Under the pieces are notes generated by a model, which was given only the letters and a program-made list of their open reading frames with translations, made no database searches and had not been told where the DNA came from. Both the position numbers and the translations under genes were made by a program. A stretch of 64,000 nt of DNA from Chondrosia reniformis (lineage: Eukaryota; Porifera; Demospongiae; Chondrillida; Chondrillidae). Location: assembly GCA_947172415.1 (NCBI GenBank), contig OX359190.1, positions 248,001-312,000 of the forward strand, written 5' to 3'. Shown here piece by piece: positions 10,872 through 64,000 of this stretch. Positions within the stretch are counted from its first letter, which is position 1; each line of letters opens with the position of its first letter.

Positions 10872-13064
10872 TCAAAGTACTACTACTCTACTGTTATTAC
10901 TGTTATAATCTGCTATGTAAATGAGTCCATCACTATCAACTGCTACACCACGAGGACCTTTCAATCCAATATCAGTCACTTCATGGACACACTGTCCATC
11001 TTGTGTGAAGATGCTGAACTTATTAGCACCAACTGAAGCTACCACTATATGTCCATCACTTGTGACTGCTATACCTCGTGGATGCTTCACAATGCCATTA
11101 CCAAACTGCCTAATAAACTGACCATTCTGCTGAAACACTTGAATGCGATTATTATCACCATCTGTGACATACACCAAATCATCAGGTGTTATGAGAATGT
11201 AACGAGGGTAATTAAACTCTCCTTCACCTTTACCCTTGTGACCAAACCTGTACAGGAATGTACCTTTTTCTGTAAACACAGAAACACAATGACCTCCCCA
11301 CTCTACCACAAATATATGTCCCTCCTTGTTAACTGCCACACCTAATGGATTACTAGGTTGACCTTGATCTTTACCTTCTCCTCCAAACTGCCTTACAAAT
11401 TCACCAGCTGCTGTGTAAATACTGATGTAGCCATTACTCCAGTCACTAACTATCACTTTCCCTGTTCTACTTAGTGCTATTCCATACAATCTACCACCAT
11501 TCTTGACTTTGAAGCTTCTTATAACTTGACCTTGTCTGTTTAGGATAGTCACTTGTCCTTTGTCATCTGAACAGTATAGCAAACCATCCGGACCTACTAC
11601 AACACCGTAATACCGAGAACCTGATGGATGCTTGAACTCCTGCTTGACTGCAGTAATTCCGCTAACACCAACTACCTTCACCTCTACTGGACTGCCTGCT
11701 ACATCATGTCCTCCAACAGTCACACTCAGATGGCACTTCTCTGATGGAACACTTGCAAACTGCACCTCATATGTGCCATCTCTCATGTCTGCTACTTTAC
11801 CAAACACAGGAACACCTGCTGTCACAGGACGAAGGACAGTCAACACTTTCTCTCCTCCTCTGCACTCATTGCCTCTCTCGTCTCTTGTCATCACCTTCAA
11901 GTTAATAGGGTTCTTTATCCAAGGTCTCATTCTGCAGGTAATGACGTCATCCTTCACTTCCACTTCTTCCATAGTGCAGTTTGGTGGATGGGGACTGTGA
12001 TGGATGCTTCCAAGTGACAAGATGTACTTTTCCACTTCTTCTCGATCACAGCTCTTCAGACCAACAGAAGGTTGGATGGAGGCTCTTGGCATTGAGATAC
12101 TGCTGCTGAGAGATGACATGCGACGGACAATCTTCTTTGTCACTGATAACTGCTCTTCTGTTGTTCCATTCAAACTCATCTCTTCTGACAGGCAATGGAA
12201 TGCATCAAGCTTCTTCAGACTGACCTTCAATTCTCTCTCGCGTCTCTCAAGTTCTCTTCTTCCTTTGTCTTCTGCTTCCCTCACTTTAGCAGCAAGACCA
12301 TCACAGCGGGCTGTCACCATGGCAAACAGATACTCCTTCATTCCAGCAATCTCTCCTAACGCATTCTCAGACTGCTGTTGGAGACTAGCTTTGCTGTCCT
12401 GCACTTCTTGAAGAGCAGATCTGATTGCCTTCCTTTGAGTCCTCACGGATGAAAGGCACTGCGTCAGAGTGGTCTTGTTCGACTCTCCCAGCTTATCGTC
12501 AATGTACGACACTTCATGAGAATGGTGAGGTTCGATCGATCGACAAATGTGACAAATCATTTCTTCACAAGTGTGACAGTAAAGTTCGCAATTCTTTCTG
12601 TGTTTCGAGCATTTGAACAAATCCTCTTTCTTACCGCCTTGCTCAAACACTCCTTGCAACGGCTTTAATTCGTGTTTTTTAAGGAACTTGTGAGATTTGT
12701 GTTCATCGACGCATTCCTGGCAAATGAACGCATCGCAAGTCGAGCAGAAACTTACGGCCGATCTCTCTTCTTCGTGTTCCCCTTGACAGATGACGCCTTC
12801 CTTCCGGTACTGGTTGCTCAAAGCCTTCCTCAGAGCGAACGGATGGTCAGAAAGATCCTTGAGAGACAAGGAGAACACTTCCTCGCAAATCTTGCAGGAG
12901 ATGCTGCGATGGAGAATCTTCTCTCGACATTCTACCTTCTCGCACAAAGCTAATGAGTGGAGACACGGTAGACATTTCAACTCTTCTACTTTCTCTCCGC
13001 AACCGACACAAGAGAGACTAAGCTCGCTGGACTGAAGGGGTGGGACCGCTGGAAGCTCCGCCAT
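10872..13064 (-). CDS. TRIM-NHL protein, copy 1 (730 aa, intact, single exon)
   Basis: Predicted RING-type E3 ubiquitin ligase of the TRIM2/TRIM3/TRIM71 architecture. Atypical RING at residues about 19-60: C19-x2-C22, C34-x-H36, C41, C46 and C57-x2-C60, with C41 and C46 four residues apart instead of two. B-box 1 is at about 93-131, and B-box 2 is at about 152-183 (C-x2-H-x7-C-x2-C-x4-C-x2-C-x5-H-x2-H). A coiled coil spans about 190-300, a filamin repeat about 365-465, and six NHL blades about 475-730. In this family NHL propellers bind RNA or protein. Blade-entry residues, which differ among copies, are RYY, RLY, NPL, NYPRY, HPR and KGPR. The start MAELPAVP is shared by all full copies except a slight change in copy 7. 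Function is inferred from domains only. Confidence 0.93.
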   Translation of the reverse strand: MAELPAVPPLQSSELSLSCVGCGEKVEELKCLPCLHSLALCEKVECREKILHRSISCKICEEVFSLSLKDLSDHPFALRKALSNQYRKEGVICQGEHEEERSAVSFCSTCDAFICQECVDEHKSHKFLKKHELKPLQGVFEQGGKKEDLFKCSKHRKNCELYCHTCEEMICHICRSIEPHHSHEVSYIDDKLGESNKTTLTQCLSSVRTQRKAIRSALQEVQDSKASLQQQSENALGEIAGMKEYLFAMVTARCDGLAAKVREAEDKGRRELERRERELKVSLKKLDAFHCLSEEMSLNGTTEEQLSVTKKIVRRMSSLSSSISMPRASIQPSVGLKSCDREEVEKYILSLGSIHHSPHPPNCTMEEVEVKDDVITCRMRPWIKNPINLKVMTRDERGNECRGGEKVLTVLRPVTAGVPVFGKVADMRDGTYEVQFASVPSEKCHLSVTVGGHDVAGSPVEVKVVGVSGITAVKQEFKHPSGSRYYGVVVGPDGLLYCSDDKGQVTILNRQGQVIRSFKVKNGGRLYGIALSRTGKVIVSDWSNGYISIYTAAGEFVRQFGGEGKDQGQPSNPLGVAVNKEGHIFVVEWGGHCVSVFTEKGTFLYRFGHKGKGEGEFNYPRYILITPDDLVYVTDGDNNRIQVFQQNGQFIRQFGNGIVKHPRGIAVTSDGHIVVASVGANKFSIFTQDGQCVHEVTDIGLKGPRGVAVDSDGLIYIADYNSNNSRVVVL

Positions 13065-13180
13065 TTGCCGACCTCGCCTAGTTGCTGTATTCGGTAAATG
13101 TTTATTCTATCTGTCTGTTGTTTGTCTAATTTTAGTAATCAGTTCAGTTGTTACTATTTTGGTGCTTTATGGTTTATGTA
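13065..13180 (-). promoter_or_regulatory. conserved 5' flank of TRIM copy 1
   Basis: About 100 bp just upstream of the start codon is nearly identical in front of all seven TRIM starts or start regions visible (TCGCCTAGTTGCTGTATTCG, then GTAAATGTTTATTCTATCTG). It is the candidate promoter and 5' UTR. The start context is GGCAAATGG. No TATA box is obvious. Confidence 0.5.
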
Positions 13181-16095: not shown

Positions 16096-16438
16096 TGGAT
16101 TAACTTTGTATAGCAGTAATAAAAAATACATTAAGTGCTGTAATTCTTCCAAATGAAGAGATATGAATCTGAAACTCTATCTCAGTATTCACAGAGATGC
16201 ATGAAAGCCATCCAATGAGTTTTGCAAATTTTAATATTTACTCAAATCCTATCTCTCACCATACGTTAACTTCATATAGCAGTAATTTAAAGTACATTAA
16301 GTGCTGTAACTCTTCCAAATGAAAAGATATGAATCTGAAACTCTCTCTCAGTATTCACAGAGATGTATGAAACGCATCCAATGAGTTTTGCAAATTTTGA
16401 TATCTACTCAAATTTGCCCTATCTCACCATACATTAAC
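16096..16438 (+). repeat. 170-bp satellite, left edge of second array
   Basis: Two forward monomers of the same family as 3351-6825, with the boxes GTGCTGTAA, ATGAATCTGAAACTC and GAGTTTTGCAAATTTT. Confidence 0.88.
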
Positions 16439-17490: not shown

Positions 17491-19705
17491 TAGAAATTTA
17501 ATGTACATTAAGTGCTGTAACTCTTCCAAATGAAAAGATATGAATTTGAAACTCTATGTCAGTATTCACAGAGATGTTTGAAAGGTTTTCATTGAGTTTT
17601 GCAAATTTTGATATCCACTCAAAATTGCCATATCTCTCCCTTTACATTAACTTCGTATAGCAGTAATTTAAAGTACATTAAGTGCTGTAACTCTTCCAAA
17701 TGAAGAGATATGAATCTGAAACTCTATCTCAGTATTCACAGAGATGTATGAAAGGCATCCAATGAGTTTTGCAAATTTTGATATTTACTCAAATTTGCCC
17801 TATCTCTCACCATACATTAACTTCATATAGATGTAATTTAATGTACACTAAGTGCTGTAACTCTTCCAAATGAAAAGATATGAATCTGAAACTCTATCTC
17901 AGAATTACCAGAGATGTATGAAACACATCCAATGAGTTTTGCTAATTTTGATATTTACTCAAATTTGCCCTATATCTCACCATACATTAACTTCATATAG
18001 CAGTAATTTAATGTACATTAAGTGCTATAACTCTTCCAAATGAAGAGATATGAATCTGAAACTCTATCTCAGTATTCACAGAGATGTATGAAAGGCATCC
18101 AATGAGTTTTGCAATTTTTGATATTTACTCAAATTTGCCATATCTCTCACCATACATTAACTTCATATAGATGTAATTTAAAGTACATTAAGTGCTGTAA
18201 CTCTTCCAAATGAAGAGATATGAATATGAAACTCTATCTCAGTATTCACAGAGTTGTATGAAAGGCATCCAATGAGTTTTGCAATTTTTGATATTTACTC
18301 AAATTTGCCCTATCTCTCACCATACGTACATTAACTTTATATAGATGTAATTTAAAGTACATTAAGTGCTGTAACTCTTCCAAATGAAGAGATATGAATC
18401 TGAAACTCTATCTCAGTATTCACAGGGTTGTATGAAAGGCATCCAATGAGTTTTGCAATTTTTTGATATTTACTCAAATTTGCCCTATTTCTCACCATAC
18501 ATACATTAACTTCATATAGCAGTAATTTAAAATACATTAAGTGCTGTAACTCTTCCAAATGAAGAGATATGAATCTGAAACTCTATCTCAGTATTCACAG
18601 AGATGTATGAAAGGCATCCAATGAGTTTTGCAAATTTTTGATATTTACTCAAATTTGCCCTATATCTCACCATACATTTACTTCATATAGATGTAATTTA
18701 AAGTACATTAAATGCTATAACTCTTCCAAATGAAGAGATATGAATCTGAAACTCTATCTCAGTATTCACAGAGATGTATGAAAGGCATCCAATGAGTTTT
18801 GCTAATTTTGATATTTACTCAAATTTGCCCTATATCTCACCATACATTAACTTCATATAGATGTAATTTAAAGTACATTAAGTGCTGTAACTCTTCAAAA
18901 TGAATAGATATGAATCTGAAACTCTATCTCAGTATTCACAGGGTTGTATGAAAGACATCCAATGAGTTTTGAAAATTTTGATATTCACTCAAATTTGCCC
19001 TATATCTCACCATACATTAACTTCATATAGATGTAATTTAAAATACATTAAGTGCTATAACTCTTCCAAATGAAGAGATATGAATCTGAAACTCTATCTC
19101 AGTATTCACAGAGATGTATGAAAGGCATCCAATGAGTTTTGCAATTTTTGATATTTACTCAAATTTGCCCTATCTCTCACCATACGTACATTAACTTCAT
19201 ATAGATGTAATTTAAAGTACATTAAGTGCTGTAACTCTTCCAAATGAATAGATATGAATCTGAAACTCTATCTCAGTATTCACAGGGTTGTATGAAAGGC
19301 ATCCAATGAGTTTTGAAAATTTTGATATTCACTCAAATTTGCCCTATATCTCACCATACATTAACTTCATATAGATGTAATTTAAAGTACATTAAGTGCT
19401 GTAACTCTTCCAAATGAAAAGATATGAAGCTGAAACTCTATCTCAGTATTCACAAAGATGTATGAAAGGCATCCATTGAGTTTTGCAATTTTTGATATTC
19501 ACTCAAATTTGCCTTATCTCTCACCATACATTAACTTCATATAGCAGTAATTTAAAATACATTAAGTGCTGTAACTCTTCCAAATGAAGAGACATGAATC
19601 TGAAACTCTATCTCAGTATTCACAGAGATGTATGAAAGGCATCCAATGAGTTTTGCAATTTTTGATATTCACTCAAATTTGCCCTATCTCTCACCATACA
19701 TTAAC
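17491..19705 (+). repeat. 170-bp satellite array between element copies 3 and 4
   Basis: About 13 forward monomers with variants at GATATGAATCTG and CAGAGATGTATGAAAGGC. The first monomer, with GTTTGAAAGGTTTTCATTGAG, recurs after element copy 4, showing that the element and its flank were amplified as a block. Confidence 0.92.
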
Positions 19706-20757
19706 TCCTAATTGCGTAATACTATAAATGGCCGACCTTGAGTAGGTATAAGAGTGAAATACGGTGCTTCATATATTTCTGAAAATTAAAACTCTTTGAA
19801 AGATTTCTTATACACATGGATATGCACTGTGTAGTACTTGATTGTTGTTGAAGCAGTATTTATCCACATATATTATATGGATGTCGTTAAAGTGAAATTT
19901 TGCCAATCGACGGCCAACGAAACTCCAAAGAAAAAAAGTTGGACCATACCGAACGCTACCATCCACGACGCTCAGAGGCCGGGATCGGTGGTAACGCTCT
20001 GCCGAGTTGAGCTTTGGGTGTCACTTGCGTGAGAAGAACCAGTTCTTCTCGATATGGCCGACTCATATGAATCCTAAGATATCAGATGCCAATCCCACAT
20101 TACGTGGAACCCCCCCGAAATCCGGATTATTGGTGAGCACGTCTCTATGGCACCAACCGATTAGGAGACAGCTTCAGAGTCTAAGCGCTACCAACCCCTA
20201 TGGGAACCGCTACCACCATAGGGATGTGTCCAGGTAGGCCTACTTTATAAGGTTTTGCGCTTCTATTTAAACAACAAAATTTCAAAAGGAAACGATTGTG
20301 GTTGGCGCTATTCCATACTTAAGAATAGGGTATTTGCGAGAAAAATGTAGTCAAATTATACCAAGTTAATTCGGGATCAGTGCATCGTTCCAAGCCATTT
20401 TAAAGGTATATCCAGTATTTGTGGTTCATCTAGAAAGTGGGAAAAATGGATAGAATCCTGTAAGTGTCTTGATTGGCGGAGGAGAACTACTTTTCTGGTC
20501 CCATGTAGAAACGATTTTTGCGAGAGGTGTTCCGATATGAACGTAAACTAGTATAACCAGCCACACTCAATCTCAATTGCTGTAATAGCGTAATGGCTAC
20601 CTGCCTCTATATAAAGACCTTCTGATAGCTGCGTTCTGGACTGTCCCTGCGTGTTTCTAGTTGCCCCATTCATGTCAAATCATTTTAACTTGGTATGCCG
20701 ATAATTTCCATAATAGTATCGCACGATATTAATGCTACACTATTAAAGGTCGTATAG
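19706..20757 (+). mobile_element. unclassified satellite-embedded element, copy 4 (long form)
   Basis: Nearly identical to copy 3 over the full 1,050 bp. The open frames are at 19838-20032 and 20007-20237. The second-frame hairpin at 20196-20223 now pairs perfectly as CCCTATGG with CCATAGGG. The flanks match those of copy 3. Confidence 0.55.
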
Positions 20758-23468
20758 TAGAAATTTAATGTACATTAAGTGCTGTAACTCTTCCAAATGA
20801 AAAGATATGAATTTGAAACTCTATGTCAGTATTCACAGAGATGTTTGAAAGGTTTTCATTGAGTTTTGCAAATTTTGATATCCACTCAAATTTGCCCTAT
20901 CTCTCCCTTTAAATTATCTTCATATAGATGTAATTTAATGTACACTAAGTGCTGTAACTCTTCCAAATGAAAAGATATGAATCTGAAACTCTATCTCAGA
21001 ATTACCAGAGATGTATGAAACACATCCAATGAGTTTTGCTAATTTTGATATTTACTCAAATTTGCCCTATCTCTCACCATACATTAACTTCATATAGATG
21101 TAATTTAAAGTACATTAAGTGCTATAACTCTTCCAAATGAAGAGATATGAATCTGAAACTCTATCTCAGTATTCACAGAGATGTATGAAAGGCATCCAAT
21201 GAGTTTTGCAATTTTTTATATTTACTCAAATTTGCCCTATCTCTCACCATACATTTACTTCATATAGATGTAATTTAAAGTACATTAAGTGCTGTAACTC
21301 TTCCAAATGAAGAGATATGAATCTGAAACTCTATCTCAGTATTCACAGAGTTATATGAAAGGCATCCAATGAGTTTTGAAAATTTTGATATTTACTCAAA
21401 TTTGCCCTATCTCTCACCATACATTAACTTCATATAGATGTAATTTAAAGTACATTAAGTGCTATAACTCTTCCAAATGAAGAGATATGAATCTGAAACT
21501 CTATCTCAGTATTCACAGAGATGTATGAAAGGCATCCAATGAGTTTTGCAATTTTTGATATTTACTCAAATTTGCCCTATCTCTCACCATACATTAACTT
21601 CATATAGATGTAATTTAAAGTACATTAAGTGCTGTAACTCTTCCAAATGAATAGATATGAATCTGAAACTCTATCTCAGTATTCACAGAGATGTATGAAA
21701 GGCATCCAATGAGTTTTGAAAATTTTGATATTTAATCAAATTTGCCCTATATCTCACCATACATTAACTTCATATAGATGTAATTTAATGTACATTAAGT
21801 GCTGTAACTCTTCCAAATGAAGAGATATGAATCTGAAACTCTATCTCAGTATTCACAGAGATGTATGAAAAGCATCCAATGAGTTTTGAAAATTTTGATA
21901 TTTAATCAAATTTGCCCTATATCTCACCATACATTAACTTCATATAGATGTAATTTAAATTACCTTAAGTGCTATAACTCTTCCAAATGAAGAGATATGA
22001 ATTTGAAACTCTATCTCAGTATTCACAGAGATGTATGAAAGGCATCCAATGAGTTTTGCAATTTTTGATATTTACTCAAATTTGCCCTATCTCTCACCAT
22101 ACATTAACTTCATATAGATGTAATTTAAAGTACATTAAGTGCTGTAACTCTTCCAAATGAATAGATATGAATCTGAAATTCTATCTCAGTATTCACAGGG
22201 TTGTATGAAAGGCATCCAATGAGTTTTGAAAATTTTGATATTTACTTAAATTTGCCCTATCTCTCACCATACATTAACTTCATATAGATGTAATTTAATT
22301 TACACTAAGTGCTGTAACTCTTCCAAATGAAAAGATATGAATTTGAAACTCTATGTCAGTATTCACAGAGATGTATGAAAGGCATCCAATGAGTCTGACA
22401 ATTTTTGATATTTACTCAAATTTGCCCTATCTCTCACCATACATTAACTTCATATTGATGTAATGTAAAGTATATTAATTGCTGTAACTCTTCCAAATGA
22501 AGAGATATGAATCTGAAACTCTATCTCAGTATTCACAGAGATGTTTGAAAGGTTTTCATTGAGTTTTGCAAATTTTGATATCCACTCAAATTTGCCCTAT
22601 CTCTCCCTTTACATTAACTTCGTATAGCAGTAATTTAAAGTACATTAAGTGCTGTAACTCTTCCAAATGAAGAGATATGAATCTGAAACTCTATATCAGT
22701 ATTCACAGAGATGGATGAAAGGCATCCAATGAGTTTTGCAAATTTTGATATTTACTCAAATTTGCCCTATATCTCACCATACATTAACTTCATATAGATG
22801 TAATTTAATGTACACTAAGTGCTGTAACTCTTCCAAATGAAAAGATATGAATCTGAAACTCTATCTCAGAATTACCAGAGATGTATGAAACACATCCAAT
22901 GAGTTTTGCAAATTTTGATATTTACTCAAATTTGCCCTATCTCTCACCATACTTTAACTTCATATAGATGTAATTTAATGTACACTAAGTGCTGTAACTC
23001 TTCCAAATGAAAAGATATGAATTTGAAACTCTATGTCAGTATTCACAGAGATGTATGAAAGGCATCCAATGAGTTTTGCAATTTTTGATATTTACTCAAA
23101 TTTGCTCTATCTCTCGCCATAAATTAACTTCTTATAGATGTAATTTAAAGTATATTAAGTGCTGTAACTCTTCCAAATGAAGAGATATGAATCTGAAACT
23201 CTCTCTCGGTATTCACAGAGATGTATGAAAGGCATCCAATGAGTTTTGCAATTTTTGATATTCACTCAAATTTGCCCTATCTCTCACCATACATTAACTT
23301 CATATAGATGTAATTTAATGTACACTAAGTGCTGTAACTCTTCCAAATGAAGAGATATGAATCTGAAACTCTATCTCAGTATTCACAGAGATGTATGAAA
23401 GGCATCCAATGAGTTTTGCAATTTTTGATATTCACTCAAATTTGCCCTATCTCTCACCATACATTAAC
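20758..23468 (+). repeat. 170-bp satellite array between element copies 4 and 5
   Basis: About 16 forward monomers. The element-to-element distance is 3,763 bp here and 3,267 bp before, a difference of about three monomers, as expected from unequal crossing over. A TTTACATTAACTTCGTATAGC variant seen near 17,640 recurs near 22,608. Confidence 0.92.
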
Positions 23469-24520: not shown

Positions 24521-25186
24521 TAGAAATTTAATGTACATTAAGTGCTGTAACTCTTCCAAATGAAAAGATATGAATTTGAAACTCTATGTCAGTATTCACA
24601 TAGATGTATGAAAGGCATCCAATGAGTTTTGCAAATTTTAATATCTACTCAAATTTGCCCTATCTCTCCCTTTACATTATCTTCATATAGATGTAATTTA
24701 ATGTACACTAAGTGCTGTAACTCTTCCAAATGAAAAGATATGAATCTGAAACTCTATCTCAGAATTACCAGAGATGTATGAAACACATCCAATGAGTTTT
24801 GCTAATTTTGATATTTACTCAAATTTGCCCTATCTCTCACCATACATTAACTTCATATAGATGTAATTTAAAGTACATTAAGTGCTATAACTCTTCCAAA
24901 TGAAGAGATATGAATCTGAAACTCTATCTCAGTATTCACAGAGATGTATGAAAGGCATCCAATGAGTTTTGCAATTTTTTATATTTACTCAAATTTGCCC
25001 TATCTCTCACCATACATTTACTTCATATAGATGTAATTTAAAGTACATTAAGTGCTGTAACTCTTCCAAATGAAGAGATATGAATCTGAAACTCTATCTC
25101 AGTATTCACAGAGTTATATGAAAGGCATCCAATGAGTTTTGAAAATTTTGATATTTACTCAAATTTGCCCTATCTCTCACCATACA
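24521..25186 (+). repeat. 170-bp satellite, right edge of second array
   Basis: About four monomers closely matching 20,760-21,420, after which the array stops at CTCACCATACAATAAGCACC. Confidence 0.9.
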
Positions 25187-25355
25187 ATAAGCACCAGGAG
25201 ACCTATAGGATCTGCATTGTGTCATTTCAAGACACCTCGATTGAATTTTCCAATAGTACAAGGCTTGTCGGTGCTTAAGCCAAAAATTGATTAAGCTCCA
25301 GGAGGCCTATTTGTGAATAGTACAAGGCTTGCTGGTGCTTAAGCCAAAAATGGAG
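25187..25355 (+). repeat. array-boundary repeat, about 1.5 units
   Basis: Two decayed units with GGTGCTTAAGCCAAAAATTG and CTGGTGCTTAAGCCAAAAAT. The last unit continues into the same sequence that follows the first array at 6,853. Confidence 0.7.
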
Positions 25356-30795: not shown

Positions 30796-32976
30796 TCAAA
30801 GTACTACTACTCTTCTATTATTACCATCTGTTATGTAAATGAGTCCATCACTATCAACTGCTACACCATGAGGACCATTCAATCCAATATCAGTCACTTC
30901 ATGGACACACTGTCCATCTTGTGTGAAGATGCTGAGCTTATTAGCACTCCGTGAAGCTACCACTATATGTCCATCACTTGTGACTGCTATACCTTTTGGA
31001 ACCATAACAATGCCATTACCAAACTGCCTAATAAACTGACCATTCTGCTGAAACACTTGAATGCGATCATTATCACCATCTGTGACATACACCAAATCAT
31101 CAGGTGTTATAAGAATGTAATTTGGGTAAAAAAACTCTCCTTCAGCTTCACCCTCGTGACCAAACCTGTACAGGAATGTACCTTCTTCTGTAAACACAGA
31201 AACACAATGACCTCCCCACTCTGCCACAACTATATGTCCCTCCTTGTTAACTGCCACACCAAAGAGATTACTAAGTTGACCTTGACCTTTACCTTTTCCT
31301 CCAAACTGCCTTACAAATTCACCAGCTGCTGTGTAGATACTGATGTAGCCATTACTAATGTCACTAACTATCACATTCCCTGTTCTACTTAGTGCTATTC
31401 CATACAACCAACCACCACTCTTGACTTTGAAGCTTCTTATAACTTGACCTTGTCTGTTTAGGATAGTCACTTGTCCATTGTTATCTGAACAGTATAGCAA
31501 ACCATCCGGACCTACTGCAACACCCAAATACACAGAACCTGATGGATGCTTGAATGCCTGCTTGACTGCAGTAATTACGCTACCACCAACTACCTTCACC
31601 TCTACTGGACTGCCTGCTACATCGTGTCCTCCAACAGTCACACTCAGATGGCACTTCTCTGATGGAACACTTGCAAACTGCACCTCATATGTGCCATCTC
31701 TCATGTCTGCTACTTTACCAAACACAGGAACACCTGCTGTCACAGGACAAAGGACAGCCAACACTTTCTCTCCTCCTCTGCACTCATTTCCTCTCTCGTC
31801 TCGTGTCTTCACCTTAAAGTGAAGAGGTTTCTTGGCAAAGCTTCTACAGGTATTGACGTTATCCTTCACTTCCACTCCTTCCATAGTGCAGTTTGGTGGA
31901 TGGGGACCGTGTTGGATGCTTCCAAGTGATGTGATGTACTTTTCCACTTCTTCTCGATCACAGCTCTTCAGACCAACAGAAGGTTGGATGGAGGCTCTTG
32001 GCATTGAGATACTGCTGCTGAGAGATGACATGCGACTGACAATCTTCTTTGTCACTGATAACTGCTCTTCTGTTGTTCCATTCAAACTCATCTCTTCTGA
32101 CAGGCAATGGAATGCATCAAGCTTCTTCAGACTGACCTTCAATTCTCTCTCGCGTCTCTCAAGTTCTCTTCTTCCCTTGTCTTCTGCTTCCCTCACTTCA
32201 GCAGCAAGACCATCACAGCGGACTGTCACCATGGTAAACAGATGCTCCTTCATTCCACCAATCTCTCCTAACGCATTCTCAGACTGCTGTTGGAGACTAG
32301 CTTTGCTGTCCTGCACTTCTTGGAGAGCAGATCTGATTGCCTTCCTTTGAGTCCTCACGGATGAAAGGCACTGCGTCAGAGTGGTCTTGTTCGACTCTCC
32401 CAGCTTATCGTCAATGTACGACACTTTGTGGGAACGATGCGGTTCGATAGAAGAGCAAATGTGACAAATCATTTCTTCACAAGTGTGACAGTAAAGTTTG
32501 CAATTCTCTTTGTGTTTCGAGCATTTGAACAAATCCTCTTTCTTACCGCCTTGCTCAAACACTCCTTGCAACGGCTTCATTTCGTGTTTCTTTAAGAATT
32601 TACGCGTTTTATGAAGATCAACGCATTCTTGGCAAATGAACACATCGCAAGTCGAGCAGAAACTTACGGCCGATCTCTCTTCTTCGTGTTCCTCCTGACA
32701 GATGACGCCTTCCTTCCGGTACTGGTTGCTCAAAGCCTTCCTCAGAGCGAACGGATGGTCAGAAAGATACTTGAGAGACAATGAGAACACTTCCTCGCAA
32801 ATCTGGCAGGAGACGCTGCGATGGAGAATCTTCTCTCGACATTCTACCTTCTCGCACAAAGCTAACGAGTGGAGACACGGTAGACATTTCAACTCTTCTA
32901 CTTTCTCTCCGCAACCGACACAAGAGAGACTAAGCTCGCTGGACTGAAGGGATGGGACCGCTGGAAGCTCCGCCAT
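30796..32976 (-). CDS. TRIM-NHL protein, copy 2 (726 aa, intact, single exon)
   Basis: Same RING, two B-boxes, coiled coil, filamin and six-NHL layout as the copy at 10,872. All zinc ligands are present (RING C57/C60 segment SCQIC; B-box 2 CSKH...CHTC...CHIC). Blade-entry residues are VYL, WLY, NLF, FYPNY, VPK and NGPH, a different set from every other copy. The filamin segment is four residues shorter (CRSFAKKP for CRMRPWIKKP), an in-frame change. It converges with PEX12 copy 2. FBXO7 copy A, also on the minus strand, lies upstream of its promoter. Confidence 0.93.
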   Translation of the reverse strand: MAELPAVPSLQSSELSLSCVGCGEKVEELKCLPCLHSLALCEKVECREKILHRSVSCQICEEVFSLSLKYLSDHPFALRKALSNQYRKEGVICQEEHEEERSAVSFCSTCDVFICQECVDLHKTRKFLKKHEMKPLQGVFEQGGKKEDLFKCSKHKENCKLYCHTCEEMICHICSSIEPHRSHKVSYIDDKLGESNKTTLTQCLSSVRTQRKAIRSALQEVQDSKASLQQQSENALGEIGGMKEHLFTMVTVRCDGLAAEVREAEDKGRRELERRERELKVSLKKLDAFHCLSEEMSLNGTTEEQLSVTKKIVSRMSSLSSSISMPRASIQPSVGLKSCDREEVEKYITSLGSIQHGPHPPNCTMEGVEVKDNVNTCRSFAKKPLHFKVKTRDERGNECRGGEKVLAVLCPVTAGVPVFGKVADMRDGTYEVQFASVPSEKCHLSVTVGGHDVAGSPVEVKVVGGSVITAVKQAFKHPSGSVYLGVAVGPDGLLYCSDNNGQVTILNRQGQVIRSFKVKSGGWLYGIALSRTGNVIVSDISNGYISIYTAAGEFVRQFGGKGKGQGQLSNLFGVAVNKEGHIVVAEWGGHCVSVFTEEGTFLYRFGHEGEAEGEFFYPNYILITPDDLVYVTDGDNDRIQVFQQNGQFIRQFGNGIVMVPKGIAVTSDGHIVVASRSANKLSIFTQDGQCVHEVTDIGLNGPHGVAVDSDGLIYITDGNNRRVVVL

Positions 32977-50237: not shown

Positions 50238-52421
50238 TCAAAGTACTACTACTCTACTGGTATTACGATCTGCTATGTAAATGAGTCCATCACTATCAAC
50301 TGCTACACCAAAAGGACCATACAATCCAATATCAGTCACTTCATGGACACACTGTCCATCTTGTGTGAAGATGCTGAGCTTATTAGCATCATATGAAGCT
50401 ACCACTATATGTCCATCACTTGTGACTGCTATACCTTGTGGATTTTTAACAATGCCATTACCAAACTGCCTAATAAACTGACCATTCTGCTGAAACACTT
50501 GAATGCGATTATTATTACCATCTGTGACATACACCAAATCATCAGGTGTTATGAGAATGTAACGAGGGGAAAAAAACTCTCCTTCAGCTTTACCCTCGTG
50601 ACCAAACCTGTACAGGAATGTACCTTTTTCTGTAAACACAGAAACACAATGACCCCAATACTCTGCCACAAATATATGTCCCTCCTTGTTAACTGCCACA
50701 CCACATGGTCCACTAAGTTGACCTTGATCTTTACCTTTTCCTCCAAACTGCCTTACAAATTCACCAGCTGCTGTGTAGATACTGATGTAGCTATAGTCAC
50801 TAGCTATCACATTCCCTGTTCTACTTAGTGCTATTCCACCCAGCGAACCACCATTCTTGACTTTGAAGCTTCTTATAACTTGACCTTGTCTGTTTAGGAT
50901 AGTCACTTGTCCCTTGTTATCTGAACAGTATAGCAAACCATCCGGACCTACTGCAACACCCAAATACTGAGAACCTGATGGATGCTTGAACTCCTGCTTG
51001 ACTGCAGTAATTACGCTACCACCAACTACCTTCATCTCTACTGGACTGCCTGCTACATCATGTCCTCCAACAGTCACACTCAGATGGCACTTCTCTGATG
51101 GAACACTCGCAAACTGCACCTCATATGTGCCATCTCTCATGTCTGTTACTTTACCAAACACAGGAACACCTGCTGTCACAGGACGAAGGACAGCCAACAC
51201 TTTCTCTCCTCCTCTGCACTCATTGCCTCTCCCGTCCCTTGTCATCACCTTCAATTGCAAAGGAGGTTTCCTTATCCGAGGTCTCATTCTACAGGTAATG
51301 ACGTTATCCTTCACTTCCACTCCTTCCATAGTGCAGTTTGGTGGATGGGGACTGTGATGAATGCTTCCAAGTGATGAGATGTATTTTTCCACTTCTTCTC
51401 GATCACAGCTCTTCAGACCAACAGAAGGTTGGATGGAGGCTCTTGGCATTGAGATACTGCTGCTGAGAGATGACATGCGACTGACAATCTTCTTTGTCAC
51501 TGATAACTGCTCTTCTGTTGTTCCATTCAAACTCATCTCTTCTGACAGGCAATGGAATGCATCAAGCTTCTTCAGACTGACCTTCAATTCTCTCTCGCGT
51601 CTATCAAGTTCTCTTCTTCCCTTGTCTTCTGCTTCCCTCACTTCAGCAGCAAGACCATCGCAGCGGGCTGTCACCATGGCAAACAGATGCTCCTTCATTT
51701 CAACAATCTCTCCTAACTCATTCTCAGACTGCTGTTGGAGACTAGCTTTGCTGTCCTGCACTTCTTGGAGAGCAGATCTGATTGCCTTCCTTTGAGTCCT
51801 CACGGATGAAAGGCACTGCGTCAGAGTGGTCTTGTTGGACTCTCCCAGCTTGTCGTCAATGTACGACACTTTGTGGGAATGGTGAGGTTCGATCGATCGA
51901 CAAATGTGACAAATCATTTCTTCACAAGTGTGACAGTAAAGTTCGCAATTCTTACTGTGCTTCAAGCAATCGAACAAATCCTCTTTCTTACCGCCTTGCT
52001 CAAACACTCTTTGCAACGGCTTCATTTCGTGTTTCTTTAAGAATTTACGCGTTTTATGATGATCAACGCATTCCTGGCAAATGAACGCATCGCAAGTCGA
52101 GCAGAAACTTACGGCCGATCTCTCTTCTTCGTGTTCCTCCTGACAGATGACACCTTCCTTCCGGTACTGGTTGCTCAAAGCCTTCCTCAGAGCGAACGGA
52201 TGGTCAGAAAGATCTTTGAAAGACAAGGAGAACACTTCCTCGCAAATCTTGCAGGAGACGCTGCGATGTAGAATCTTCTCTCGACATTCTACCTTTTCGC
52301 ACAAAGCTAACGAGTGGAGACACGGTAGACATTTCAACTTTTCTACTTTCTCTCCGCAACCGACACAAGAGAGACTAAGCTCGCTGGACTGAAGGGGTGG
52401 GACCGCTGGAAGCTCCGCCAT
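50238..52421 (-). CDS. TRIM-NHL protein, copy 5 (727 aa, intact, single exon)
   Basis: Standard layout with all zinc ligands. Blade-entry residues are QYL, SLG, GPC, FSPRY, NPQ and YGPF. The blade-2 loop is shortened to SDYSY by an in-frame deletion, and the blade-3 loop reads AEYWGHC. The filamin segment reads RPRIRKPPLQLK with one added residue, shared with the copy at 62,611. B-box 2 starts FDCLKHSKNCE, as in the copy at 56,202 (FKCLKH), which suggests exchange or recent common descent. Its upstream region matches that of copy 1. Confidence 0.93.
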   Translation of the reverse strand: MAELPAVPPLQSSELSLSCVGCGEKVEKLKCLPCLHSLALCEKVECREKILHRSVSCKICEEVFSLSFKDLSDHPFALRKALSNQYRKEGVICQEEHEEERSAVSFCSTCDAFICQECVDHHKTRKFLKKHEMKPLQRVFEQGGKKEDLFDCLKHSKNCELYCHTCEEMICHICRSIEPHHSHKVSYIDDKLGESNKTTLTQCLSSVRTQRKAIRSALQEVQDSKASLQQQSENELGEIVEMKEHLFAMVTARCDGLAAEVREAEDKGRRELDRRERELKVSLKKLDAFHCLSEEMSLNGTTEEQLSVTKKIVSRMSSLSSSISMPRASIQPSVGLKSCDREEVEKYISSLGSIHHSPHPPNCTMEGVEVKDNVITCRMRPRIRKPPLQLKVMTRDGRGNECRGGEKVLAVLRPVTAGVPVFGKVTDMRDGTYEVQFASVPSEKCHLSVTVGGHDVAGSPVEMKVVGGSVITAVKQEFKHPSGSQYLGVAVGPDGLLYCSDNKGQVTILNRQGQVIRSFKVKNGGSLGGIALSRTGNVIASDYSYISIYTAAGEFVRQFGGKGKDQGQLSGPCGVAVNKEGHIFVAEYWGHCVSVFTEKGTFLYRFGHEGKAEGEFFSPRYILITPDDLVYVTDGNNNRIQVFQQNGQFIRQFGNGIVKNPQGIAVTSDGHIVVASYDANKLSIFTQDGQCVHEVTDIGLYGPFGVAVDSDGLIYIADRNTSRVVVL

Positions 52422-55275: not shown

Positions 55276-55896
55276 TCAAAGTACTACTACTCTACTGTTA
55301 TTAAGATCTGCTATGTAAATGAGTCCATCACTATCAACTGCTACACCAACAGGACCATTCAATCCAATATCAGTCACTTCATGGACACACTGTCCATCTT
55401 GTGTGAAGATGCTGAGCTTATTAGCACTCCATGAAGCGACCACTATATGTCCATCACTTGTGACTGCTATACCTTGTGGATTTTTAACAATGCCATTACC
55501 AAACTGCCTAATAAACTGACCATTCTGCTGAAACACTTGAATGCAATGATTATCACTTGTGACATACACCAAATCATCAGGTGTCATGAGAATGTAACGA
55601 GGGAAATAAAACTCTCCTTCAACTTCACACTCGTGACCAAACCTGTACAGGAATGTACCTTCTTCTGTAAACACAGAAACACAATGACTTCCATACTCTG
55701 CCACAAATATATGTCCTTCCTTGTTAACTGCCACACCACATGGATTACTAAGTTGACCTTGATCTTCACCTTTTCCTCCAAACTGCCTTACAAATTCACC
55801 AGCTGCTGTGTAGATACTGATGTAGCCATTAATGTCACTAACTATCACATTCCCTGTTCTACTTAGTGTTATTCCATACAATCTACCACCATTCTT
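55276..55896 (-). pseudogene. TRIM-NHL 3' fragment (NHL blades 2-6 only)
   Basis: About 206 codons homologous to the end of the TRIM genes, starting at KNGGRLYGI (position about 521 of the 730-aa copy) and running to the shared RVVVL terminus. It is open throughout. Blade entries are RLY, NPC, YFPRY, NPQ and NGPV, a further distinct combination. RING, B-boxes, coiled coil and filamin are missing; homology breaks at 55,896 into AT-rich DNA. It may act as a sequence donor for gene conversion, but cannot make a TRIM protein. Confidence 0.85.
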
Positions 55897-56201
55897 ATTT
55901 CAGAGTGAAAAAAGTGGAAATGTATATATGCAAAGGATTTCCACATTTATTTGGGAATTTCTGTTAAGGAGTCAGTTAATTTACTATTTCAAATTTTATA
56001 ACATCATTTGATAGATTTTTCTATTTTTAATATGTACCTTCATTATACAGAATCAGACACGGAGACACTTTATAGTGAAATAAACTTCTCATTTTTATAA
56101 TTTTGAAGATATTAAATTAATTTAAATGAATCATTACACAATTAATTTATTCTTTAATTTAAAAAAATGTTCACAGTTAACAACTTGTTCTCTAAAAGTT
56201 C
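55897..56201. other. spacer between the TRIM fragment and TRIM copy 7
   Basis: AT-rich, with no match to the usual PEX12-TRIM spacer until about 56,165. The PEX12 exon normally found downstream of a TRIM gene is missing here. No gene is seen. Confidence 0.45.
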
Positions 56202-58391
56202 TCAAAGTACTACTACTCTACTGTTATTACTGTTATAATCTGCAATGTAAATGAGTCCATCACTATCAACTGCTACACCACGAGGACCTTTCAATCCAAT
56301 ATCAGTCACTTCATGGACACACTGTCCATCTTGTGTGAAGATGCTGAGCTTATTAGCACTCTGTGAAGCGACCACTATATGTCCATCACTTGTGACTGCT
56401 ATACCTCGTGGATCCTTCACAATGCCATTACCAAACTGCCTAATAAACTGACCATTCAGCTGAAACACTTGAATGCGATGATTATCACCATCTGTGACAT
56501 ACACCAAATCATCAGGTGTTATGAGAATGTAATTTGGGTAATAAAACTCTCCTTCAGCTTTACCCCTGTGACCAAACCTGTACAGGAATGTACCTTCTTC
56601 TGTAAACACAGAAACACAATGACTTCCATACTCTGCCACAAATATATGTCCCTCCTTGTTAACTGCCAAACCAACTGGATTACTAAGTAGACCTTGATCT
56701 TTACCTTTTCCTCCAAACTGCCTTACAAATTCACCAGCTGCTGTGTAGATACTGATGTAGCAATTATTATAGTCACTAACTATCACATTCCCTGTTCTAC
56801 TTAGTGCTATTCCAAACAACCAATCACCATTCTTGAATTTGAAGCTTCTTATAACTTGACCTTGTCTGTTTAGGATAGTCACTTGTCCTCTCTTATCTGA
56901 ACAGTATAGCAAACCATCCAGACCTACTGCAACACCCAAATACCCAGAACCTGATGGATGCTTGAACTCCTGCTTGACTTCAGTAATTCCGCTAGCACCA
57001 ACTACCTTCACCTCTACTGGACTGCCTGCTACATCATGTCCTCCAACAGTCACACTCAGATGGCACTTCTCTGATGGAACACTCGCAAACTGCACCTCGT
57101 ATGTGCCATCTCTCATGTCTGCTACTTTACCAAACACAGGAACACCTGCTGTCACAGGACGAAGGACAGCCAACACTTTCTCTCCTCCTCTGTACTCATT
57201 GCCTCTCTCATCTCTTGTCTTCACCTTCAAGTGAAGAGGTTTCTTTATCCAAGGTCTCATTTTGCAGGTAATGACGTTATCCTTCACTTCCACTCCTTCC
57301 ATAGTGCAGTTTGGTGGATAGGGACCGTGATGGATGCTTCCAAGTGATGAGATGTACTTTTCCACTTCTTCTCGATCACAGCTCTTCAGACCAACAGAAG
57401 GTTGGATGGAGGCTCTTGGCATTGAGATACTGCTGCTGAGAGATGACATGCGACTGACAATCTTCTTTGTCACTGATAACTGCTCTTCTGTTGTTCCATT
57501 CAAACTCATCTCTTCTGACAGGCAATGGAATGCATCAAGCTTCTTCAGACTGACCTTTAATTCTCTCTCGCGTCTCTCAAGTTCTTTTCTACCCTTGTCT
57601 TCTGCTTCCCTCACTTCAGCAGCAAGACCATCACAGCGGGCTGTCACCATGGCAAACAGATGCTCCTTCATTCCAGCAATCTCTCCTAACGCATTCTCAG
57701 ACTGCTGTTGGAGACTAGCTTTGCTGTCCTGCACTTCTTGGAGAGCAGATCTGATTGCCTTCCTTTGAGTCCTCACGGATGAAAGGCACTGCGTCAGAGT
57801 GGTCTTGTTGGACTCTCCCAGCTTATCGTCAATGTACGACACTTTGTGGGAATGGTGAGGTTCGATCGATCGACAAATGTGACAAATCATTTCTTCACAA
57901 GTGTGACAGTAAAGTTCGCAATTCTTACTGTGTTTCAAGCATTTGAACAAATCCTCTTTCTTACCGCCTTGCTCAAACACTCCTTGCAACGGCTTCATTT
58001 CGTGTTTCTTCAAGACTTTTCGAGTTTTATGATGATCAACGCATTCTTGGCAAATGAACGCATCGCAAGTCGAGCAGAAACTTACGGCCGATCTCTCTTC
58101 TTCGTGTTCCTCCTGACAGATGACGCCTTCCTTCCGGTACTGGTTGCTCAAAGCCTTCCTCAGAGCGAACGGATGGTCAGAAAGATCCTTGAGAGACAAT
58201 GAGAACACTTCCTCGCAAATCTTGCAGGAGACGCTGCGATGGAGAATCTTGTCTCGACATTCTACCTTCTCACACAAAGCTAACGAGTGGAGACACGGTA
58301 GACATTTCAACTCTTCTACTTTCTCTCCGCAACCGACACAAGAGAGACTAAGCTCTAACTGAATGAGTGGGACCGCTGGGAGCTCCGCCAT
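56202..58391 (-). CDS. TRIM-NHL protein, copy 7 (729 aa, intact, single exon)
   Basis: Standard layout with all zinc ligands. The N-terminus is slightly altered (VPLIQLELSLSC). Blade entries are GYL, WLF, NPV, YYPNY, DPR and KGPR. The blade-2 loop is SDYNNCY. The last blade ends ADYNSNNSRVVVL with two extra residues, exactly as in copy 1, although other blades differ. That mosaic pattern fits segmental gene conversion. B-box 1 DHHKTRKVLKK combines features of copies 4 and 5. Confidence 0.93.
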   Translation of the reverse strand: MAELPAVPLIQLELSLSCVGCGEKVEELKCLPCLHSLALCEKVECRDKILHRSVSCKICEEVFSLSLKDLSDHPFALRKALSNQYRKEGVICQEEHEEERSAVSFCSTCDAFICQECVDHHKTRKVLKKHEMKPLQGVFEQGGKKEDLFKCLKHSKNCELYCHTCEEMICHICRSIEPHHSHKVSYIDDKLGESNKTTLTQCLSSVRTQRKAIRSALQEVQDSKASLQQQSENALGEIAGMKEHLFAMVTARCDGLAAEVREAEDKGRKELERRERELKVSLKKLDAFHCLSEEMSLNGTTEEQLSVTKKIVSRMSSLSSSISMPRASIQPSVGLKSCDREEVEKYISSLGSIHHGPYPPNCTMEGVEVKDNVITCKMRPWIKKPLHLKVKTRDERGNEYRGGEKVLAVLRPVTAGVPVFGKVADMRDGTYEVQFASVPSEKCHLSVTVGGHDVAGSPVEVKVVGASGITEVKQEFKHPSGSGYLGVAVGLDGLLYCSDKRGQVTILNRQGQVIRSFKFKNGDWLFGIALSRTGNVIVSDYNNCYISIYTAAGEFVRQFGGKGKDQGLLSNPVGLAVNKEGHIFVAEYGSHCVSVFTEEGTFLYRFGHRGKAEGEFYYPNYILITPDDLVYVTDGDNHRIQVFQLNGQFIRQFGNGIVKDPRGIAVTSDGHIVVASQSANKLSIFTQDGQCVHEVTDIGLKGPRGVAVDSDGLIYIADYNSNNSRVVVL

Positions 58392-59259: not shown

Positions 59260-59263
59260 TTAA

Positions 59264-62329: not shown

Positions 62330-62610
62330 TTACTATATAAATATCTATATTGACATGTGATATTAACTCTTTCTATGAAAGATGTTATTAAATTCATTGT
62401 CCTTTTTATTATTTTGTCCATTTTCAATTGAACAAAGTGACTGGCTTTTTGAGGGAAAGTTACCAAATTAGGAAAACACTTGTAATGTAATTTGTAAATA
62501 AAAATATGAATTGATAAATAAATTGAAACTCGTTGTACAACTAATCTAATAATTTCAATAAACTAATTAAATAATTGTTCACAGTTAACAAACTTGTTCT
62601 CTAAACGTTC
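62330..62610. other. convergent 3' intergenic segment before TRIM copy 8
   Basis: AT-rich and nearly identical to 55,008-55,275. No gene is seen. Confidence 0.4.
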
Positions 62611-64000
62611 TCAAAGTACTACTACTCTACTGCTATGCTGATCTGCTATGTAAATGAGTCCATCACTATCAACTGCTACACCACGAGGACCATTCAATCC
62701 AATATCAGTCACTTCATGGACACACTGTCCATCTTGTGTGAAGATGCTGAGCTCATTATTAGCACTCCGTGAAGCTACCACTATATGTCCATCACTTGTG
62801 ACTGCTATACCTTCTGGATCCTTCACAATGCCATTACCAAACTGCCTAATAAACTGACCATTCTGCTGAAACACTTGAATGCGATTATTATTACCATCTG
62901 TGACATACACCAAATCATCAGGTGTTATGAGAATGTAATTTGGGTAATTAAACTCTCCTTCAGCTTCACCCTCGTGACCAAACCTGTACAGGAATGTACC
63001 TTCTTCTGTAAACACAGAAACACAATGACCTCCAAACTCTGCCACAAATATATGTCCCTCCTTGTTAACTGCCAAACCACATGGATTACTAAGTTGACCT
63101 TGATCTTCACCTTTTCCTCCAAACTGCCTTACAAATTCACCAGCTGCTGTGTAGATACTGATGTAGCCATTACTCCAATCACTAACTATCACATTCCCTG
63201 TTCTGCTTAGTGCTATTCCAAACAACCAACCACCATACTTGACTTTGAAGCTTCTTATAACTTGACCTTGTCTGTTTAGGATAGTCACTTGTCCATTATT
63301 ATCTGAACAGTATAGCAAACCATCCGGACCTACTGCAACACCCAAATACCGAGAACCTGATGGATGCTTGAACTCCTGCTTGACTGCAGTAATTCCACTA
63401 GTACCAACTATCTTCACCTCTACTGGACTGCCTGCTACATCATGTCCTCCAACAGTCACACTCAGATGGCACTTCTCTGATGGAACACTTACAAACTGCA
63501 CCTCATATGTGCCATCTCTCATGTCTGCTACTTTACCAAACACAGGAACACCTGCTGTCACAGGACGAAGGACAGCCAACACTTTCTCTCCTCCTCTGCA
63601 CTCATTGCTTCTCTCGTCTCTTGTCATCACCTTCAATTGCAAAGGAGGTTTCTTAGGAATTCTTGTTCCGCAGGTAATGACGTTATCCTTCACTTCCACT
63701 CCTTCCATAGTGCAGTTTGGTGGATGGGGACTGTGATGGATGCTTCCAAGTGATGAGATGTACTTTTCCACTTCTTCTCGATCACAGCTCTTCAGACCAA
63801 CAGAAGGTTGGATGGAGGCTCTTGGCATTGAGATACTGCTGCTGAGAGATGACATGCGACTAACAATCTTCTTTGTCGCTGATAACTGCTCTTCTGTTGT
63901 TCCATTCAAACTCATCTCTTCTGACAGGCAATGGAATGCATCAAGCTTCTTCAGACTGACCTTCAATTCTCTCTCACGTCTCTCAAGTTCTCTTCTTCCC
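62611..64000 (-). CDS. TRIM-NHL protein, copy 8 (partial, runs past window end)
   Basis: Open to the edge of the window; about 463 codons visible. They cover the end of the coiled coil (GRRELERRERELKVSLKKLD), the filamin repeat and six NHL blades ending ADQHSSRVVVL. The reading frame continues through GGGAAGAAG at 64,000, so the RING and B-boxes lie outside. Blade entries are RYL, WLF, NPC, NYPNY, DPE and NGPR. The filamin segment CGTRIPKKPPLQLK has the PPLQ form shared only with copy 5, with an otherwise different start. One extra residue occurs in the blade-5 loop (SANNELS). Confidence 0.92.
   Translation of the reverse strand, partial: GRRELERRERELKVSLKKLDAFHCLSEEMSLNGTTEEQLSATKKIVSRMSSLSSSISMPRASIQPSVGLKSCDREEVEKYISSLGSIHHSPHPPNCTMEGVEVKDNVITCGTRIPKKPPLQLKVMTRDERSNECRGGEKVLAVLRPVTAGVPVFGKVADMRDGTYEVQFVSVPSEKCHLSVTVGGHDVAGSPVEVKIVGTSGITAVKQEFKHPSGSRYLGVAVGPDGLLYCSDNNGQVTILNRQGQVIRSFKVKYGGWLFGIALSRTGNVIVSDWSNGYISIYTAAGEFVRQFGGKGEDQGQLSNPCGLAVNKEGHIFVAEFGGHCVSVFTEEGTFLYRFGHEGEAEGEFNYPNYILITPDDLVYVTDGNNNRIQVFQQNGQFIRQFGNGIVKDPEGIAVTSDGHIVVASRSANNELSIFTQDGQCVHEVTDIGLNGPRGVAVDSDGLIYIADQHSSRVVVL

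What the first reader, a model, noticed from the sequence alone, without database searches (positions are those of the whole stretch)
10872..64000. TRIM-NHL array with copy-to-copy variation focused on propeller loops
Seen: eight TRIM-NHL copies are almost identical from the coiled coil into the filamin repeat, but differ at corresponding places in every NHL blade. The residues just before the conserved G-I/V-A-V start of a blade differ between most copies (for example blade 6: KGPR, NGPH, NDPC, NRPR, YGPF, NGPV). So does the loop after the D of the second strand (SDWSNGY, SDISNGY, SNWSNGY, SDYSY, SDYNNCY; SVGANK, SRSANK, SYDPNK, SWSANK, SQSANK). In the 730-aa copy these sites fall near 484, 526, 573, 619, 662 and 703, a spacing of 41-47 residues, the blade period. 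Known: NHL propellers of Brat and LIN-41 bind RNA through loops on one face. Inference: a constant ubiquitin-ligase chassis carries a diversifying recognition surface, possibly an innate-immune or self/non-self repertoire.
Basis: partly seen in the sequence, partly recalled or inferred. Interest (0 to 1): 0.85.

Follow-up and report, generated by a model that had tools for sequence, protein, structure and literature searches.

The report
Sponge TRIM-NHL genes, hypervariable propeller face
A genome that appears to be a sponge's carries dozens of similar TRIM-NHL genes whose proteins differ most at ligand-contact positions on one face of their six-bladed propeller, the pattern expected of an inherited repertoire for recognising changing targets.

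Summary
Six complete TRIM-NHL genes, one cut by the window edge and one NHL-only fragment lie here. They belong to a family of at least 61 copies (57 with a frame over 700 aa) in a genome whose size fits the sponge Chondrosia reniformis. Twenty-four codons at twelve places, two per blade, differ in 73% of pairwise comparisons; the rest of NHL and the chassis differ in about 9%. Sites chosen in one set of copies keep dN/dS above 1 in the other set, and in a second family about 54% identical: 1.96-4.35, against 0.73-0.80 (rest of NHL) and 0.35-0.40 (chassis). On a confident model, 30 of 33 positively selected NHL sites lie in or beside the D-A and B-C loops and none in or beside the A-B and C-D loops. 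Eleven of 14 RNA contacts of zebrafish LIN41 fall on equivalent positions. The layout resembles that of fungal HNWD receptors. I infer diversifying selection on a recognition surface. Copies recombine, so the tempo is uncertain. Ligand, immune role and ligase activity are untested.

The parts
10872..13064 (-). complete TRIM-NHL gene, 730 aa, single open frame
30796..32976 (-). complete TRIM-NHL gene, 726 aa
37055..39241 (-). complete TRIM-NHL gene, 728 aa
43815..46001 (-). complete TRIM-NHL gene, 728 aa
50238..52421 (-). complete TRIM-NHL gene, 727 aa; reference copy for residue numbers
55279..55971 (-). NHL-only fragment (about residues 508-727; the listed open frame is 55276-55899, 207 aa), 3' of the next gene
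56202..58391 (-). complete TRIM-NHL gene, 729 aa
62611..64000 (-). TRIM-NHL gene cut by the window edge; complete in the genome (matched at C2:310614-312800, 729 aa)
52242..52367 (-). RING-like zinc-ligand motif of the reference copy (residues 19-60, C-x2-C ... C-x-H-x4-C-x4-C ... C-x2-C)
   Evidence: 57 of 57 copies keep the eight ligands; PF13920 14.9 bits, below its cut-off of 27
52014..52148 (-). best B-box stretch of the reference copy (residues 92-136); Pfam reports two stretches
   Evidence: PF00643
51039..51347 (-). filamin repeat of the reference copy (residues 359-461)
   Evidence: PF00630
50241..51026 (-). NHL six-bladed propeller of the reference copy (residues 466-727)
   Evidence: PF01436; AF2 pLDDT 92.6
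50967..50969 (-). hypervariable site 485, blade 1, D-A loop (neighbours 484 and 487 are also positive in the scan)
50913..50918 (-). hypervariable pair 502/503, blade 1, B-C loop
50838..50846 (-). hypervariable pair 526/528, blade 2, D-A loop (526 reaches 0.95 with one of the two trees)
50790..50795 (-). hypervariable pair 543/544, blade 2, B-C loop
50703..50711 (-). hypervariable pair 571/573, blade 3, D-A loop
50655..50660 (-). hypervariable pair 588/589, blade 3, B-C loop (589 does not reach 0.95 in any of the scans)
50562..50573 (-). hypervariable sites 617/618/620, blade 4, D-A loop
50508..50516 (-). hypervariable sites 636/638, blade 4, B-C loop
50436..50444 (-). hypervariable pair 660/662, blade 5, D-A loop
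50388..50393 (-). hypervariable pair 677/678, blade 5, B-C loop
50310..50318 (-). hypervariable pair 702/704, blade 6, D-A loop
50262..50267 (-). hypervariable pair 719/720, blade 6, B-C loop

Best explanation
This is a germline-encoded repertoire of TRIM-NHL proteins, generated by gene duplication and recombination between copies. Diversifying selection falls on the ligand-contact positions of the NHL propeller's upper face: the D-A and B-C loops of all six blades. Purifying selection holds the propeller core, the filamin repeat and the RING-like/B-box/coiled-coil chassis. Each copy offers a different contact surface on the same scaffold. Shown by computation: the sites, their periodicity, their face, the excess of amino-acid over synonymous change, and replication in a second family. 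Inferred: that the surfaces bind ligands that change over time (most likely protein or peptide targets from microbes, viruses or other individuals), and that binding leads to ubiquitin-dependent or oligomer-dependent signalling through the constant half.
For: The 25 most variable residues of 57 copies are all in NHL. Cross-validated dN/dS is 4.35 and 2.29 at the sites (24 and 22 NHL sites of the top 26), against 0.76-0.80 for the rest of NHL and 0.35-0.40 for the chassis. In family B, with sites taken from family A, it is 1.96 against 0.73 and 0.40. My FUBAR-like scan gives posterior over 0.95 for 23 of 24 sites with a tree that ignores them, 22 of 24 with an NHL tree that includes them and 23 of 24 with one tree per blade. 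Heterozygosity in the 24 codons is 0.45/0.46 at positions 1/2; third-base T/C in NNY codons is 0.039. Of 33 NHL sites positive with both trees, 30 are among the 109 residues in or beside D-A/B-C loops and 0 among the 89 in or beside A-B/C-D loops. NHL model pLDDT is 92.6. Eleven of 14 LIN41 RNA-contact residues map to the 24 sites. 57 of 61 gathered copies have a frame over 700 aa.
Against: Divergence at the sites is not clock-like. L010/L017 and L001/L005 have 0 changes there with 17 and 35 nucleotide changes elsewhere, whereas L015/W50238, with 47 elsewhere, differ at 25 of 31 codons; L008/L017 (28 elsewhere) differ at 16, all from codon 543 on. So blocks are exchanged and the dN/dS values are not clean rates. 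The nearest neighbour agrees between gene segments for only 4-11 of 49 copies. Counted dS at the sites is itself raised (0.136 and 0.279 against 0.046 and 0.070 in the rest of NHL; 0.168 against 0.078 in family B), and third-base T/C diversity is twice that of the rest of NHL. The site scan is my own script, not a published program; twelve chassis sites also pass 0.95, a guide to its false positives. No expression, population or ligand data are at hand. The chassis model failed (pLDDT 38.6).
Confidence: 0.75

Rival explanations
1. RNA-recognition repertoire: the faces bind different RNA sequences or hairpins (viral, transposon or host), as Brat and LIN41 NHL domains do. This differs from the best explanation only in the ligand.
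For: 11 of 14 LIN41 RNA contacts fall on the 24 sites and the other three are one residue away (8 of 14 if only the 33 sites are counted). Foldseek places the model with Thin, TRIM2, TRIM71 and Brat NHL. TRIM56 is reported to restrict Zika virus through RNA binding (PMC6623546, listing only).
Against: The 24 residues carry little positive charge (mean net +1.0, range -3 to +4), with lysine 2.3% and aromatics averaging 5.4 per copy. LIN41 uses many Arg/Lys. The same loops are the protein-binding face in HNWD WD40 propellers.
Confidence: 0.25
2. Old variation sheltered from family-wide homogenisation: gene conversion erases synonymous change across the gene while selection only keeps the contact codons different, so the high dN/dS reflects lowered dS rather than fast change.
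For: Mosaic copies and block-wise differences. Variable-site divergence correlates only weakly with local backbone divergence (Spearman 0.23). In the 241 of 7056 blade windows with no other nucleotide difference, 65% of variable codons still differ. Counted dS at the sites is raised.
Against: Conversion tracts would have to stop between sites some 50-80 bp apart at all twelve places. The rest of NHL, which lies between the sites, has lower synonymous diversity than the chassis. Non-coding flanks of 325 of 1176 pairs align over at least 600 nt; the 60 closest pairs, which were printed, show 1.1-3.6% divergence. This rival still needs selection for diversity at the sites.
Confidence: 0.3
3. Targeted mutagenesis of the loops (for example diversity-generating retroelement-like or local hypermutation).
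For: Extreme focus; bases change at codon positions 1 and 2 with the third position nearly fixed at many sites. Third-base T/C diversity at the sites is about twice that of the rest of NHL (0.039 against 0.019), and codons next to the sites are up to twice as diverse (0.06-0.08 against about 0.04).
Against: The same third-base diversity is below that of the chassis (0.051), more than ten times below positions 1 and 2 of the same codons. Adenines next to the sites or elsewhere in NHL are not enriched for change (0.040 and 0.042, no higher than C or G). A mutator has no ready way to tell codon position. No template repeat or reverse transcriptase was looked for.
Confidence: 0.05
4. Relaxed constraint: the loops are simply free to drift.
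For: They are surface loops.
Against: Drift gives dN/dS up to 1. Observed dN at the sites is 0.59-0.64, against dS of 0.046-0.070 in the rest of NHL and 0.089-0.137 in the chassis. The A-B and C-D loops of the same propeller hold none of the 33 selected sites.
Confidence: 0.03

Closest known systems
HNWD NLR family of Podospora anserina (het-d, het-e, het-r)
   Same: Propeller sensor in a paralogous family with four selected codons per repeat: 7 and 9 in the D-A loop, flanking a conserved residue, and 25 and 27 in the B-C turn, all on the interaction face (PMC1805685 and PMC12222747, passages). Here too two clusters per blade in the same two loops, 17-18 residues apart, the D-A pair flanking one residue.
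   Different: WD40 and NACHT architecture and a fungal host. In most blades here the B-C pair is adjacent, not flanking. Repeats within one gene are over 80% identical there, but 30% here. Diversity here was seen between paralogs, not between near-identical repeats of one gene.
TRIM-NHL regulators (Brat, LIN-41/TRIM71, TRIM2/3, Mei-P26, Thin)
   Same: B-box, filamin and six-bladed NHL with the same fold; the same face contacts ligand in LIN41.
   Different: Those in the papers read (passages and sections) regulate mRNAs and development. A tandem repertoire with a hypervariable face was not found in the searches made.
TRIM5 and fish finTRIM (TRIM with B30.2/SPRY)
   Same: TRIM chassis with positively selected ligand loops and gene expansion (recalled; rapid amplification of SPRY TRIMs in fish is mentioned in PMC3503706, passage).
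   Different: Different recognition domain (SPRY, not NHL) and host.

Membership tests
TRIM-NHL with filamin (TRIM class VII) | six-bladed NHL propeller | tested here: met
   PF01436; model pLDDT 92.6, Foldseek TM (query) 0.83-0.92 to NHL domains of TRIM-NHL proteins
TRIM-NHL with filamin (TRIM class VII) | B-boxes | tested here: met
   PF00643, two stretches
TRIM-NHL with filamin (TRIM class VII) | filamin repeat before NHL | tested here: met
   PF00630 33.1 bits, cut-off 26.9
TRIM-NHL with filamin (TRIM class VII) | coiled coil | tested here: inconclusive
   long helix 194-297 in a low-confidence model; weak matches to TRIM3, TIF1-beta and TRIM25 chains
TRIM-NHL with filamin (TRIM class VII) | RING finger | tested here: inconclusive
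   eight ligands conserved in 57 of 57 but x4/x4 spacing and Pfam 14.9 bits, below 27
HNWD receptors | selected codons in D-A loop and B-C turn of each blade | tested here: met
   against passages; B-C pairs mostly adjacent here, not flanking
HNWD receptors | HET/NACHT/WD40 architecture | tested here: not met
   Pfam finds B-box, filamin and NHL; no NACHT or HET among the 22 families listed at E up to 1, and only a weak WD40 match of 12 bits
HNWD receptors | near-identical repeats within one gene | tested here: not met
   blade-blade identity 30%, range 19-48%, in one copy
RNA-binding NHL domains | ligand positions on the upper face | tested here: met
   11 of 14 LIN41 contacts coincide
RNA-binding NHL domains | strongly basic face and measured RNA binding | tested here: inconclusive
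   net charge of the 24 residues +1.0 on average; other face residues not counted; binding not testable here
Immune or allorecognition receptor | allelic polymorphism and recognition phenotype | not testable with these tools
   one assembly only
Diversity-generating retroelement target | adenine-specific change | tested here: not met
   no excess at adenines outside the 24 sites
Diversity-generating retroelement target | template repeat and dedicated reverse transcriptase | not tested
   no search made

The most novel reading that the evidence does not exclude
Sponges have a propeller-based, antibody-like recognition system: at least 78 open germline TRIM-NHL genes examined here in two families (57 and 21), nearly every one showing a different contact face on one constant effector chassis, used for intracellular non-self or allorecognition. 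It would have arisen independently of the fungal HNWD system on the same twin-loop layout of a propeller blade.
Probability: 0.45. Interest if true: 0.92.

Novelty: new variant of a known kind. Interest (0 to 1): 0.8.

Why it matters
The TRIM-NHL proteins in the papers read here are mRNA and developmental regulators. A large, hypervariable TRIM-NHL repertoire in one of the earliest-branching animals would add a new recognition module to animal defence or allorecognition. It would also show that two kingdoms converged on the same loops of a propeller as a diversity platform. It names which residues to swap, so ligand recognition becomes directly testable.

Tried and rejected
Relaxed constraint was disfavoured by rates measured against the rest of NHL and by the empty opposite face. 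Local hypermutation and an adenine-targeting mutator were disfavoured by third-base and adenine heterozygosity, though third-base diversity at the sites is about twice that of the rest of NHL. A multiple alignment of flanks suggested that homology stops about 120 bp upstream of the genes. Local alignments showed this to be largely an alignment failure: 325 of 1176 pairs have at least 600 nt of alignable flank (HSPs summed, repeats may be counted twice; the 60 closest pairs were printed, of which six differ by less than 0.2 per base at the sites). Structure of the N-terminal half: model unusable. Rows dropped: 4 of 61 copies without a frame over 700 aa (L025, L030, L033, L046), and the eight most diverged copies (L048-L055) for rate tests, leaving 49 of 57. 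Family B: 21 of 33 near-full-length rows were used; two of the 21 coding sequences are identical. The set of 24 sites was picked by eye from the list: of its first 25, residues 609 and 722 were left out and 638 was added; the cross-validation used automatic lists of 26 instead. Literature searches for sponge NHL/TRIM families found nothing on point.
Full report
Setting. The window is C2:248001-312000 of a genome of 117,379,552 bases in 15 contigs. Size and number fit the chromosomal assembly of the sponge Chondrosia reniformis (117.37 Mb, 14 pseudomolecules and a mitochondrion; PMC12181767, start of abstract seen in the listing). I infer the species from this and did not test it by sequence. 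The window lies in an array of copies between C2 positions 180 and 458 kb, with further copies at C2 2.3, 3.2 and 7.45 Mb and on C1, C4, C5, C6, C8, C12 and C14. That search scored 61 of 251 candidates, so the count is a lower bound.

The genes. Six complete minus-strand frames of 726-730 aa, one frame cut by the right edge and one NHL-only fragment were found. Pfam gives B-box, filamin and NHL. A RING-like motif keeps its eight cysteine/histidine ligands in 57 of 57 copies but has unusual spacing and scores below the Pfam cut-off. With the window copies I gathered 61 family members; 57 have a frame over 700 aa.

The variable sites. In the alignment of 57 copies the 25 most variable residues all lie in NHL. 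In the numbering of the copy at 50238-52421 I work with 24 sites: 485, 502/503, 526/528, 543/544, 571/573, 588/589, 617/618/620, 636/638, 660/662, 677/678, 702/704 and 719/720. They were picked by eye from that list (609 and 722 left out, 638 added). They form two places in every blade, with near-constant spacing. Pairwise differences among 49 core copies are 72.8% at these sites, 8.6% in the rest of NHL and 9.0% in the chassis; only 2 of 1176 pairs differ at three or fewer, and there are 47 distinct site haplotypes among 49.

Selection. To avoid circularity I chose sites automatically in one set of copies and measured in another. Of the 28 most variable residues in each set, 22 are shared. 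dN/dS was 4.35 (33 array copies, sites from the others) and 2.29 (16 other copies, sites from the array), against 0.80/0.76 for the rest of NHL and 0.40/0.35 for the chassis. A second family, mainly on C9, C3 and C7 and 53-55% identical to the first, gave 33 near-full-length matches, 28 without a stop inside; 21 were aligned. Of its 24 most variable residues 21 are in NHL, three are in the chassis, and 12 are among the 24 sites of the first family. The hypergeometric P is 1.5e-13 over the whole protein and 7e-10 counting NHL positions only. With the 24 sites fixed from the first family, dN/dS is 1.96, against 0.73 and 0.40. A grid-based site scan written here gave posterior above 0.95 for 23 of 24 sites (tree without them), 22 of 24 (NHL tree with them) and 23 of 24 (one tree per blade). 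It also passed twelve chassis sites. In the 24 codons heterozygosity is 0.449 and 0.458 at bases 1 and 2, while third-base T/C in NNY codons is 0.039, against 0.019 in the rest of NHL and 0.051 in the chassis; codons next to the sites are at 0.06-0.08. Counted dS at the sites is nevertheless raised (0.136 and 0.279), part of which I put down to path counting in codons with several changes. The bulk of the change is in amino acids.

Structure. The NHL model, from an alignment of seven window copies, has pLDDT 92.6 and pTM 0.90 and matches Thin, TRIM2, TRIM3, TRIM71, Brat and Mei-P26 NHL domains. Of the 33 NHL sites positive with both trees, 30 sit in or beside D-A and B-C loops (109 residues), none in or beside A-B and C-D loops (89 residues), two in strand cores and one in the linker (Fisher P 2e-9). 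I counted the first two and the last residue of a strand with the adjoining loop. The RNA contacts of zebrafish LIN41 (PMC5908797, section 8 part 1 and section 10 read) were mapped through the gap-free repeat alignments: 11 of 14 coincide with the 24 sites and three are one residue away (P 3e-10 by binomial, treating contacts as independent; 7 of 9 distinct positions, P 4e-8; 8 of 14 coincide with the 33 sites). The mapping is by repeat register, so the blade number may differ.

History. The copies are mosaics. The nearest neighbour agrees between gene segments for only 4 to 11 of 49 copies. L008 and L017 share the variable codons up to 528 and then differ at 16. Some near pairs have no change at the sites (L010/L017, L001/L005), others many. 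Among the eight closest independent pairs the sites have 12.7 times more change per base than the surrounding NHL, but this mixes mutation with exchange. I therefore claim selection for diversity with confidence, and its tempo with less. Of the 60 pairs with the most similar alignable flanks (1.1-3.6% divergent), 54 differ by more than 0.2 per base at the sites.

What it most resembles. In the fungal HNWD receptors four codons per WD40 repeat are under positive selection: 7 and 9 in the D-A loop flanking a conserved residue, and 25 and 27 in the B-C turn. They lie on the predicted interaction face of the domain that recognises HET-C (PMC1805685 and PMC12222747, passages). The sponge sites lie in the same two loops at the same distance, with the D-A pair also flanking one residue; the B-C pair is mostly adjacent. 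It is not a member: architecture and internal repeat identity differ. This is likeness of working, not kinship.

Ligand. The variable residues are mainly N, Y, G, R, S, C, F, D, W and H, with few K, A, P and T, and mean net charge is +1.0. This is closer to a general contact surface than to a basic RNA face, so I favour protein or peptide ligands and keep RNA as the main rival. Function as an immune or allorecognition repertoire is inference from the pattern alone. No paper describing such a repertoire was found in the searches; these cover only an open-access library and the terms used, and long lists were seen only in part.

Noticed in passing
window 1-453, 1345-2536, 3380-6820, 16100-16413, 17495-23469, 24525-25190: Satellite of units of about 170 bp (166-170; up to 35 copies per block, interrupted by other sequence) in the gene-free stretches of the window.
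   Followed up: no
window 8207-8479, 26704-27332, 47269-48831: 59-bp minisatellite with one consensus at three places between TRIM-NHL genes; a 34-bp repeat lies near two of them, at 7773-8011 and 26270-26508.
   Followed up: no
codons 100-132, 166-198 and 364-396 of the TRIM-NHL genes: High synonymous diversity (pS 0.20-0.29) in the B-box region and at the filamin start, as if two or more old sequence versions are exchanged between copies.
   Followed up: partly
G000 C9:7172259/7219964 and C9:7177614/7225319: Two family-B genes recur with the same offset of 47,705 bp and equal or near-equal match scores, suggesting a segmental duplication.
   Followed up: no
5' side of the genes, residues before the start codon: The frame stays open upstream with a conserved HLPNTATRRGLQ-like stretch in many copies, perhaps part of the 5' untranslated region or an upstream exon.
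   Followed up: no
24 variable codons: Second-base C is rare (3% against 15% in the rest of NHL); serine there is mostly AGT, with TCN largely at site 526.
   Followed up: partly
G000, NHL matches: 150 of 612 NHL candidates were scored; frames of 730-930 aa with NHL on C3, C7, C11, C12 and C14 hint at further TRIM-NHL groups beyond the two families studied.
   Followed up: no
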